NCBI RefSeq assembly: GCF_023698535.1
Contig: NZ_JALJCL010000006.1
Location: 124,001-188,000, forward strand
Source of the DNA: Halorientalis regularis
GTDB taxonomy: Archaea; Halobacteriota; Halobacteria; Halobacteriales; Haloarculaceae
DNA: 64,000 nucleotides
Direction of reading: 5' to 3'
In this document: piece by piece, positions 22,582 to 25,117 of the stretch
How the letters are laid out: every line of letters starts with the position of its first letter
How positions within the stretch are numbered: position 1 is the stretch's first letter
Position numbers and translations under genes: made by a program
The notes under the pieces: model-generated
What the model saw: the letters and a program-made list of their open reading frames with translations, nothing else
Told to the model about the DNA's origin: nothing
Database searches by the model: none

Positions 22582-22682
22582 TGTGGACACCAATGGGCGT
22601 ATTCGCGTTGTGATGTACAAATCCGTTCATCGACTTAAGCGTATCGGGTCCACGGTGGTCCGGACGGCACGACAGGTGCGTG

Positions 22683-23975
22683 TCAGCTACCCACCGCTGA
22701 AGCGGTGGGCTTGTCGGTGGACTCCCGTTCTGCCGACACGGGAGTGTCGGACGCTACGTCAGTCGCGTTCACGGTCATCACCCCCGACTTCAGGGCGTAC
22801 TGACAGAACGCCCCTCCAGCAGGGGACTTCTGCCCCCGCTGGAGTTGAAGCGCGAGCTTCCGGGCGATATTCTTCGCCGCGTTGTAGTCGGCGTTCACCG
22901 AGTACGAACAGTCGAGGCAGGCGAAGCGTTGCCCGTGGCGGTTTTCTTCGAGCGTACAGCCACATTTCGAGCATTGCTGGCTCGTGTAGGACGGTTCGAC
23001 TGTCTCGACCACGATGCCGTGTTCGTCGGCTTTGTACGCAACTTGTTCCTGTAACGCACGGAATGCCCACTGCTGGAATTTCTTGCCGTCGCTGATGCAC
23101 TCTCGAATCTGTGCCAGGTCCTCGAACGCGATGTGCGTACAGCCGTGGTGTTCGGCCTCTGCAACGAGTTCTTTCGAACAACGATGCAGGTAGTCACGGC
23201 TCCAGCGACCGAACCTGTCACCGATGCGCTGATAGGTCAGGTGGGCGCTTCGCGTCCCGGTCTGTTGCAGGCTGGCACGCCGTTTCTCGAACTCGCGGCG
23301 CTCGTGGTTGAGGGAGTCGGCGTTGCCGATGAACGTCCCAGTCGAGGTCACGGCGATGTGGCCATCAACGTTGCAGTCCACGCCAAGGACTCTCGAATCC
23401 TCGGCTTTCTCAGGACTGCTCGCGTCGGGTTCCCGTTCCATCGCGGCGTGCAGGTAGAATTCGTCGGCGTCGCTGTCGTAGTGGACGGTGCTGGTCGAAA
23501 ACGAGTAGGTCTCGTTCAGCAGGTACTCGCCGTGGGGTGTGCCTTCGGGGTCGTCGGGCAGGTCGTACTCGCATTCGACTCTGCCGTTGACGGTAGCGAG
23601 ACTTACCTTGTCGCGGTAGTAGGTAGCGGCTCGCTTGTCGTAGACGATGCTGAACGTGTCGTATTCGGGCTTGCTGGTGGTCTCGCCCTCGGCAAGTCGG
23701 TCAACGCAATTGCCAATATCGTCGGTGGCGCGTTTGATGGCTTTCTGGACGAGGTTCGCGTGCAAGCCGTCCGTTTCGTCGCGGAGGTCGTCGTAGATAC
23801 CGGCTTCCGCTTCACTCTTGTTGGTCACGCAGTCTTCGTCGGGATGGCGCCACGCCCAGTCTGCGGTGCGGTTCGCACAGTACTGGAATTTGGAGTTGGT
23901 AGCGTGGAGGTCGCTCTTTCGGTCGTCGGGCACGTCGAGACGGACGCGAACCGTTCGAGTTACCTCCCACACCAT
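22683..23975 (-). CDS. tnpB: TnpB, RNA-guided nuclease of a solo IS200/IS605-type element
   Basis: This 430-residue protein has a helix-turn-helix N terminus, a split RuvC domain with D200 (LGVDCNVDG), E285 (FEDLAQI) and D363 (NADYNAAKN), and a zinc ribbon (C335, C338, C353, C356). All catalytic residues are present, so it may be active. TnpB proteins cut double-stranded DNA guided by an RNA made from the element's right end. No tnpA transposase accompanies it (IS1341-type arrangement). The last codons (KPTASAVGS) encode the right-end hairpin at 22690-22709, so the guide-RNA scaffold overlaps the gene's 3' end. Confidence 0.92.
   Translation of the reverse strand: MVWEVTRTVRVRLDVPDDRKSDLHATNSKFQYCANRTADWAWRHPDEDCVTNKSEAEAGIYDDLRDETDGLHANLVQKAIKRATDDIGNCVDRLAEGETTSKPEYDTFSIVYDKRAATYYRDKVSLATVNGRVECEYDLPDDPEGTPHGEYLLNETYSFSTSTVHYDSDADEFYLHAAMEREPDASSPEKAEDSRVLGVDCNVDGHIAVTSTGTFIGNADSLNHERREFEKRRASLQQTGTRSAHLTYQRIGDRFGRWSRDYLHRCSKELVAEAEHHGCTHIAFEDLAQIRECISDGKKFQQWAFRALQEQVAYKADEHGIVVETVEPSYTSQQCSKCGCTLEENRHGQRFACLDCSYSVNADYNAAKNIARKLALQLQRGQKSPAGGAFCQYALKSGVMTVNATDVASDTPVSAERESTDKPTASAVGS
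22684..22747 (-). ncRNA. Putative omega (guide) RNA scaffold of TnpB
   Basis: The 3' end of tnpB contains two hairpins in series: ACTCCCGT / ACGGGAGT at 22721-22745 and CCCACCGCT / AGCGGTGGG at 22690-22709. In characterised TnpB systems the RNA ends a few bases beyond the element's right end, and the flanking DNA supplies the guide. By that rule the guide would be read from about 22683 downwards into the spacer before trpD. The RNA itself is inferred. Confidence 0.5.
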
Positions 23976-24206
23976 ACGTCACAGTAGTAGCTATCCTTTA
24001 TTAATATCTTTTATCACGTTGGGGAGTCAGGAATGCTGATACTGGTGGATCGTTGCACGGAGCGTACGCGCTTCCTCCCACGGCTAAAGCCGTGGGCATC
24101 CGCGCTGTATCCGCTGTGACACGGGCACGAGTGCCGGACGGAACGGCTTTCTCCAATCCGAAACCTTCAATTACCACTGCGGGTTACGGTGTGGTGTAGG
24201 CAGCAC

Positions 24207-24281
24207 GGGTTCGTGGTCTAGATCGGTTACGACACCTCCTTGACATGGAGGAGGCCGACGGTTCAAATCCGTCCGGACCCA
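24207..24281 (+). tRNA. tRNA-Val(GAC)
   Basis: The 75-nt gene folds fully: acceptor GGGTTCG / CGGACCC (one G-U pair), D arm TCTAGATCGGTTACGA, anticodon stem CCTCC / GGAGG with loop TTGACAT (anticodon GAC), and T arm GACGGTTCAAATCCGTC. The discriminator is A at 24281 and CCA is not encoded. There is no intron. An AT-containing promoter-like TTCAATTACC lies at about 24166-24175. An HNH endonuclease gene ends 36 nt beyond the 3' end, convergent. Confidence 0.95.
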
Positions 24282-24316: not shown

Positions 24317-25117
24317 TTACCAGTAGGACTCCAGAGGTTGATCGTCTGGATCAGGCTCAACGGTCGTACCCGGTGCATCAGGGTGATGAGTTCGGCAGAC
24401 AGTGACGAGATTCCGGAGAAGGTGTGCGTGTTCAGGTGGCTTCTCCCAGATTTTGAATAGCCGGACCGGAACAATGTGGTGGACCTCTACACCGCGACCG
24501 AAACGGCGTCGATGTTCTTCGTCGTGAATTCCGCAGACAGTACATCGGTAATCGTCGCGTACGAGAGCTTTTTCGCGCTGTTTGATCCAGTGTGTCGAAT
24601 AGTATCCGCTGGTCTCGACCCTGTTGTCCTGCCCCCAGCACGCCATGGAACAGTACTCGGTATCCAGCGATTGCCGTCGCTCGAAGGTCTCTTCACAGCC
24701 GGAACAGGTGAGTTCGACCTGTCGCCGTCGCGGTTTCCCGGCACAGTCGTTCGAGCAGAACTGTCCGTCACGGACTGACGGGTAGTACCGAAATTCCTCG
24801 CCACAGGTTTCACACGCACTCGTTGCCAGCGATTCCCCATCGGTAATGTCGAGTCGGGCGAGCCAATGGCAGATGGTGGTCTCGGCGACGTTGCACTCGT
24901 CGGCGATGTCCTGTTGGTCACGGCGTTTCTCGACGTACTGCTCGCGGAGCCACTGCCGGTCCTGATACCGACGGTCGTCGTCGATGTCGTGCCGGGCGAG
25001 CCAGCGACGGATCGCACTCGGCGACGTACCGCACATCTCGGCGATCTCCGTCGAGGACTTCCCGCTCTCGACGTACTGAGTTCGGAGAACTTCCGCATCC
25101 TGGTAGCGCCTACTCAT
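24317..25117 (-). CDS. HNH endonuclease with duplicated HTH modules and zinc fingers
   Basis: The 266-residue protein starts with two copies of an HTH module (about residues 4-44 and 50-92; each begins YQD and ends WLAR.DI). Two zinc knuckles follow (CETCGEEF..CSNDC at about 103-124 and CSGCEETF..CSMAC at about 134-157). The nuclease is C-terminal: CTVCGIHDEE, then VEVHHIVPVRLF and LVTVCRTHH (about 194-250). It resembles homing-type HNH proteins of haloarchaea and their viruses. It sits next to a tRNA 3' end, a common place for mobile genes. Composition is less GC-rich than most neighbours. Confidence 0.85.
   Translation of the reverse strand: MSRRYQDAEVLRTQYVESGKSSTEIAEMCGTSPSAIRRWLARHDIDDDRRYQDRQWLREQYVEKRRDQQDIADECNVAETTICHWLARLDITDGESLATSACETCGEEFRYYPSVRDGQFCSNDCAGKPRRRQVELTCSGCEETFERRQSLDTEYCSMACWGQDNRVETSGYYSTHWIKQREKALVRDDYRCTVCGIHDEEHRRRFGRGVEVHHIVPVRLFKIWEKPPEHAHLLRNLVTVCRTHHPDAPGTTVEPDPDDQPLESYW

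What the first reader, a model, noticed from the sequence alone, without database searches (positions are those of the whole stretch)
22683..24100. Solo TnpB element with intact nuclease and guide scaffold
All three RuvC acids and the four zinc cysteines are present. The last codons of tnpB themselves form the right-end hairpin, and a second hairpin lies 12 nt inside. There is no tnpA, so transposition would need a helper or the nuclease has been kept for another job. The predicted guide would come from the spacer before trpD, so the element could protect its own site by cutting the empty copy.
Basis: partly seen in the sequence, partly recalled or inferred. Interest (0 to 1): 0.6.

Follow-up and report, generated by a model that had tools for sequence, protein, structure and literature searches.

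The report
Hitchhiking TnpB element with embedded hairpin
A salt-loving archaeon carries a small jumping element that encodes only an RNA-guided DNA cutter and probably borrows another element's transposase to move; its ends and empty sites show that it moves, and its gene holds a second conserved hairpin that we did not find described.

Summary
The element is window 22682-24115 (-), 1434 bp, in a Halorientalis genome. It carries an intact 430-aa TnpB and no tnpA. It is a non-autonomous IS200/IS605 (IS1341-type) element rather than a domesticated nuclease. We found 45 distinct insertions. Of the 36 with both ends, 33 follow TCAC; all 43 readable right ends stop in TGAC; the sites differ. All seven congeners lack it in the trpD/tRNA-Val spacer. 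Both ends fit the IS608 guide/cleavage-site pairing, and resident tnpA+ elements share the left-end layout. A 71-nt scar 31 kb away, at the site where a congener keeps the full element, records a past loss with an exact right edge. The predicted guide has no other target in its genome within 3 mismatches.

New: the ORF overlaps two RNA structures, the guide scaffold (last 50 codons) and a covarying hairpin just before RuvC-I (23376-23416). The hairpin recurs in related haloarchaeal tnpB families, and its 5' arm encodes a disordered linker. Our paper searches found no report of it. Its cis-acting role is inferred. Neither expression nor cleavage was tested.

The parts
22682..24115 (-). whole element, 1434 bp, left end at 24115 and right end at 22682
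   Evidence: Ends shared by relatives at unrelated sites; spacer without it in 7 of 7 congeners
22683..23975 (-). tnpB, 430 aa; stop codon TGA lies inside the last four bases (TGAC) of the element
   Evidence: dN/dS 0.086 over the ORF body in 33 relatives
24116..24119 (-). TCAC target site, predicted TAM and left cleavage site
   Evidence: 33 of 36 full-ended insertions are preceded by TCAC
24097..24100 (-). left guide tetranucleotide GATG (GAAG in most relatives)
   Evidence: Fits the TCAC pairing rule; 28 of 36 relatives fit at all three positions; IS608 rule from PMC5934647
24077..24096 (-). left-end hairpin CCCACGGCTTTAGCCGTGGG
23376..23416 (-). internal hairpin before RuvC-I: inner 9-bp stem 23382-23405 plus outer 4-bp stem
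   Evidence: Second best RNAalifold z in the ORF, -6.07; synonymous divergence 0.198 against 0.918; covariation in 55 distinct hairpins; three further families
22682..22846 (-). guide-RNA scaffold, overlaps the 3' end of tnpB (constraint starts near codon 381)
22733..22750 (-). conserved inner scaffold hairpin CCGACAC/GTGTCGG
   Evidence: 93.1% of cells paired in 33 sequences
22710..22713 (-). right guide tetranucleotide CAAG
   Evidence: Fits TGAC in 34 of 35 relatives that could be parsed
22690..22709 (-). right-end hairpin
   Evidence: 97.0% paired, 3 of 8 pairs with both-side changes
22682..22685 (-). right cleavage site TGAC
   Evidence: 43 of 43 readable right ends
22662..22681 (-). predicted guide sequence, from the spacer before trpD
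   Evidence: Flank directly after the right end; position by analogy to known TnpB guides

Best explanation
This is a non-autonomous IS200/IS605-family (IS1341-type) element that moves by single-strand excision and insertion with a Y1 transposase supplied in trans. It inserts after TCAC. The TnpB mRNA ends in a scaffold RNA whose guide is read from the 3' flank; TnpB with this RNA would cut an empty allele next to TCAC and so promote copying back of the element. Shown: the ends, the target, empty sites, different sites in many genomes, a loss scar with an exact right edge, selection on the protein, overlap of coding and RNA structure. Inferred: helper TnpA, guide-RNA production, cleavage, copying back. 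A second RNA-level structure inside the ORF before RuvC-I probably acts in cis on tnpB or its guide RNA; that role is inferred.
For: Family at different sites: 45 distinct insertions of 61 loci after removal of duplicates, 33 of 36 full-ended ones after TCAC, 43 of 43 right ends TGAC. Empty site in 7 of 7 congeners. IS608-type guide/cleavage pairing at both ends (rule taken from the IS608 sequences in PMC5934647). Three resident tnpA+ elements share the left-end layout, with TTAC/AAAG in place of TCAC/GAAG. 21 of 24 tested carriers have a Y1 transposase elsewhere. Scar: first 71 nt of the element, identical to the window copy, joined to the flank that follows the full element in the congener G007. 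dN/dS 0.086. Catalytic residues 33 of 33.
Against: Three carriers (G033, G114, G305) show no Y1 transposase, so a helper may have been lost or need not be resident. PMC3119063 reports strain-specific insertions in Haloquadratum where nearly all tnpA genes are broken (passages). Right-end spacing differs between this element (8 nt from hairpin to cleavage) and the resident tnpA+ elements (10 nt). No RNA, cleavage or transposition data. The scar also shows 2 bp of microhomology and could be an ordinary deletion.
Confidence: 0.85

Rival explanations
1. TnpB has been domesticated at this site for a host job such as regulating trpD or the tRNA gene.
For: Strong purifying selection (dN/dS 0.086); intact active site; near a biosynthesis gene.
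Against: Absent from this site in 7 of 7 congeners; relatives at 45 sites; active-site residues kept, unlike nuclease-dead repressors known from the literature (recalled); intact ends.
Confidence: 0.06
2. The internal hairpin acts in the single-stranded DNA intermediate (for example as a transposase or polymerase landing site), not in the mRNA.
For: The strand that carries it is the same strand that bears the terminal hairpins; DNA hairpins matter in this family.
Against: G-T pairs (47) outnumber A-C (11), as expected for RNA, though this also holds weakly for that DNA strand. tnpA+ elements of the same genome lack it, so a transposase does not generally need it.
Confidence: 0.25
3. The internal hairpin is a by-product of conserved protein sequence and codon bias (AE-x-x-VLGVD).
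For: The protein sequence alone already favours pairing: 5.99 of 9 pairs expected with synonymous codons shuffled against about 1.4-4.2 for shifted partners.
Against: Observed 7.49 of 9; covariation 0.133 against shuffle maximum 0.072; the 5' arm encodes a disordered, variable linker, residues 184-192 with pLDDT under 50; GAT with GTC, CAT with GTG codon coupling.
Confidence: 0.12

Closest known systems
IS200/IS605 family, IS1341-type tnpB-only elements of haloarchaea (PMC3119063, passages read)
   Same: tnpB without tnpA, subterminal palindromes, no target duplication, high diversity at low copy number; core-deleted derivatives (PATEs)
   Different: Here the exact target, guide tetranucleotides, empty sites and donor scar are defined; the hairpin before RuvC-I was not mentioned in the passages read
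IS608 and ISDra2 (PMC5934647, PMC8612924)
   Same: Guide/cleavage-site pairing at both ends; tnpB ahead of a right end whose flank supplies the guide
   Different: Those carry tnpA; here TCAC/GAAG and TGAC/CAAG instead of TTAC/AAAG and TCAA/GAAT
Haloarchaeal sotRNAs / omega RNAs, Rfam sot0042 and sot2652 (PMC8303175, PMC12558985)
   Same: Guide scaffold transcribed in sense from the tnpB 3' end
   Different: The window scaffold matches no Rfam omega-RNA family at E up to 1 or 0.1; another TnpB of the genome does match sot0042, below its gathering score
Inhibitory mRNA region of AmaTnpB (PMC10278001, section 12 read)
   Same: A stretch inside tnpB mRNA that may act in cis on nuclease activity
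   Different: That lies by RuvC-II and is proposed to pair with the guide RNA; ours lies by RuvC-I, is a self-contained conserved hairpin, and is not the best partner of the scaffold

Membership tests
TnpB nucleases | RuvC D-E-D and four zinc cysteines | tested here: met
TnpB nucleases | RNA-guided cleavage next to a TAM | not testable with these tools
   Needs an assay; TCAC predicted from insertion sites
TnpB nucleases | Guide scaffold at the right end, overlapping or following the ORF | tested here: met
   Structure and synonymous constraint; transcription not tested
IS200/IS605 elements | Subterminal hairpins and no target duplication | tested here: met
IS200/IS605 elements | Insertion after a fixed short target, matched by guide tetranucleotides | tested here: met
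   33 of 36 after TCAC; pairing rule fits at all positions in 28 of 36 left ends and 34 of 35 right ends
IS200/IS605 elements | Y1 transposase TnpA | tested here: not met
   Absent in the element; no neighbour match in 139 loci with three usable TnpA queries; present elsewhere in the genome. Filed therefore as a non-autonomous (IS1341-type) member
TldR-type nuclease-dead TnpB repressors (recalled) | Lost RuvC residues | tested here: not met
   Active-site residues intact, 33 of 33

The most novel reading that the evidence does not exclude
tnpA-less haloarchaeal tnpB genes carry, besides the guide scaffold, a second overlapping RNA element just before the RuvC-I codons. It uses the disordered linker between the N-terminal half and the nuclease domain as free coding space and controls in cis how much nuclease or guide RNA is made, which could help explain how such elements persist at about one copy per genome.
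Probability: 0.4. Interest if true: 0.65.

Novelty: new variant of a known kind. Interest (0 to 1): 0.45.

Why it matters
Most haloarchaeal tnpB genes have no tnpA beside them, and it has been unclear whether they still move. This family gives a clean case: exact ends, target, both guide tetranucleotides, empty sites, a donor scar, and named candidate helpers, so trans-mobilisation and self-protection can be tested directly in a culturable halophile. The internal hairpin would be a second RNA gene-within-a-gene in a very abundant protein family, and it can be tested with synonymous mutants.

Tried and rejected
Domestication at this site: rejected, since the site is empty in 7 of 7 congeners. 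Pairing of the internal hairpin region with the scaffold, as proposed for AmaTnpB: not supported. In ten sequences that I picked out of 33, the window starting at codon 196 averaged -38.8 against a mean of -35.3 (sd 3.0), and at least ten other windows were stronger. Known Rfam guide-RNA families: no match to the window scaffold; the Acido-Lenti-1 row there is below its gathering score and covers the terminal hairpin. Scar as palindrome-mediated core deletion, as in Haloquadratum (PMC3119063): does not fit, because no right-end sequence is left; a short-microhomology deletion remains possible.

Limits and mishaps. In one search two of five TnpA queries (L009, C45) were read in a wrong frame, so the negative rests on L010, L012 and L011; the single hit came from a wrong-frame query and is discarded. 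In one search the two added rows L091 and L092 were mis-anchored; that alignment was not used for counts. The 98 blocks are only TnpB ORFs that matched a RuvC-I/zinc-finger motif, not all TnpBs held. The codon analysis uses 33 of 45 insertions; the other 12 are truncated or frame-broken. Copy number outside the genus rests on searches that scored only the best 12 or 4 candidates per genome.

Full report
What is there. The window lies in a 4.03-Mb haloarchaeal genome. The ORF 22683-23975 (-) encodes a 430-aa TnpB with intact RuvC and zinc residues. Its own genome has 33 rows for the TnpB C-terminal domain (two of them below the cut-off) and 5 Y1-transposase rows.

Ends. Searches with the protein found close relatives in 4 of 8 genus genomes including its own, 19 of 146 family genomes, 26 of 392 genomes drawn from the order and further named genomes. 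I took 61 loci; 16 were the same insertion seen twice, leaving 45 distinct insertions. Thirty-six have both ends. TCAC precedes the left end in 33 of 36; the exceptions read AGTC, GGAC and TCAT. All 43 readable right ends finish in TGAC, and flanks beyond them are unrelated. The AGTC case (G007) sits next to a rearranged flank: the orthologous site in the window's genome has about 418 bp more there and reads TCAC. The window element therefore spans 22682-24115.

Empty site. The trpD gene was found in 8 of 8 genus genomes. In the 7 others the tRNA-Val and trpD are joined by a spacer without the element. In G006 and G001 the bases at the junction are TCAC followed by ACG, just as expected for clean insertion after TCAC. 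The blocks next to tRNA-Val and next to trpD that are conserved among the eight genomes lie on either side of the insertion, so it probably left both promoters whole (inference).

Transposase substrate. In IS608 the left cleavage site TTAC is read by the guide AAAG and the right site TCAA by GAAT (PMC5934647, passages). From these two pairs I derived a rule: site base 1 with guide base 2, base 2 with guide base 1, base 4 with guide base 4. The window element has TCAC with GATG and TGAC with CAAG, and both fit. In the family 28 of 36 left ends and 34 of 35 parsable right ends fit at all three positions. Most of these share one guide/site combination, so this is consistency, not 36 independent tests. 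Three tnpA+tnpB elements in the same genome have TTAC with AAAG at an otherwise closely similar left end, and TCAG with GAAC at the right. Changing the target with the guide is what trans-mobilisation would predict. No tnpA lies beside any of 139 relatives by three usable queries. Of 24 carriers tested, 21 have a Y1 transposase somewhere; G033, G114 and G305 have none.

A scar. About 31 kb from the element on the same contig, outside the window, the genome holds TTCAC followed by the first 71 nt of the element (100% identical to the window copy) and then directly the sequence that follows the full element in G007. Flanking DNA matches G007 at 94% and 87%. So the element was at this site in an ancestor and was lost from there, with the right edge exactly at the cleavage site and the left edge after CCAC, one base off TCAC. 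An aberrant transposase excision explains this well; a deletion through the shared AC is possible. Because the window copy keeps its full left end, it did not come from that last event.

Guide. The 20 nt after TGAC, with TCAC in front, were searched in the 8 genus genomes at up to 3 mismatches. In the window's genome the only match is the element's own right junction, where TGAC replaces TCAC. The two other matches in the genus, in G001 and G004, have 3 mismatches each and lie elsewhere. This fits self-sparing, but was not tested.

Two RNA layers in one ORF. Over 33 intact relatives the ORF body has median dN 0.079 and dS 0.918. In the last 50 codons dS falls to 0.186, and in codons 187-203 to 0.198. 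A permutation of columns never reached the observed minimum in 5000 trials. An RNAalifold scan with phase-keeping column shuffles ranks codons 411-430 first (z -8.55) and 181-200 second (z -6.07). The second structure is GCCGAGGAT-TCGAGA-GTCCTTGGC with an outer GTCC/GGAC stem (for its place). Where the residue is His (CAT) the Val codon is GTG, and where it is Asp (GAT) it is GTC.

Breadth. In 98 TnpB blocks anchored without gaps at the RuvC-I motif, forming 27 clusters, the mean is 7.49 of 9 pairs against 5.99 with synonymous codons shuffled; no single cluster is decisive on its own. In 55 distinct hairpins 87.9% of cells pair (shuffles 82.0, maximum 84.2) and the covariation score is 0.133 (shuffles 0.038, maximum 0.072). 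Related sequences can exceed such shuffles without structure, so the independent families matter: in three others the 8-codon hairpin window ranks 4th of 359, 2nd of 300 and 7th of 333 for low synonymous divergence. Other low windows exist in the third family. TnpBs that sit with tnpA in this genome, and several other paralogues, lack the hairpin.

Fit with the protein. An AlphaFold model from 19 sequences (mean pLDDT 74.3, pTM 0.46) has only three stretches under 50: residues 1-4, 184-192 and 381-430. The last two are the linker that encodes the 5' arm of the internal hairpin and the tail that encodes the scaffold. The RNA structures thus use stretches where the protein is free; the 3' arm of the internal hairpin lies in the RuvC-I strand.

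Literature. Papers were searched. Unlinked tnpB genes, PATEs and tight copy number in haloarchaea are described in PMC3119063 (passages). Sense transcripts over the tnpB 3' end are described in PMC8303175 (passages) and PMC12558985 (abstract and two sections). Self-processing, and an inhibitory region in the mRNA of one TnpB, are in PMC10278001 (passages and section 12). A gene-drive use in plasmids is in PMC11870625 (abstract). The 2015 sotRNA paper is not held. None of what I read mentions a hairpin before RuvC-I; that is no proof that it is unreported.

Verdict. The element is a well-defined new family of a known kind. The internal hairpin makes its gene unusual, and its role is open. Interest 0.45.

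Noticed in passing
G000:C44 about 192690-192960 (L196, L202), outside the window: A short element without an ORF: a left-end-like start after ATCAC, a right end 98% identical to this element over 46 nt, ending GCTGAC. It looks like a PATE-type derivative.
   Followed up: partly
G000:C42 about 116270-116350 (L182, L201), outside the window: Scar of the same element: 71 nt of left end joined to the flank that follows the full element in G007.
   Followed up: yes
L092, L093, L098 and relatives, around the RuvC-I codons: By eye, the 51%-identical tnpB family seems to have an additional outer stem of up to 10 bp (GCCAGTCACG/CGTGACTGGC) around the inner hairpin; low synonymous divergence at +5 to +8 codons agrees.
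   Followed up: partly
window 24207-24281; L166 5027-5098; L168 1271-1344: tRNA genes lie near three of the six TnpB or element loci scanned with Rfam; no background rate was measured.
   Followed up: no
window 24317-25117 (-): 266-aa ORF with helix-turn-helix and HNH_2 matches beside tRNA-Val.
   Followed up: no
G000:C43, C16, C44 (L160, L161, L163): The right-end hairpin of the tnpA+ elements is near-identical, over about 24 nt, to the left-end hairpin of the window element.
   Followed up: no
G033, G305 (L060, L153): Two of the three carriers without a Y1 transposase also have a damaged tnpB frame; numbers are too small to conclude.
   Followed up: no
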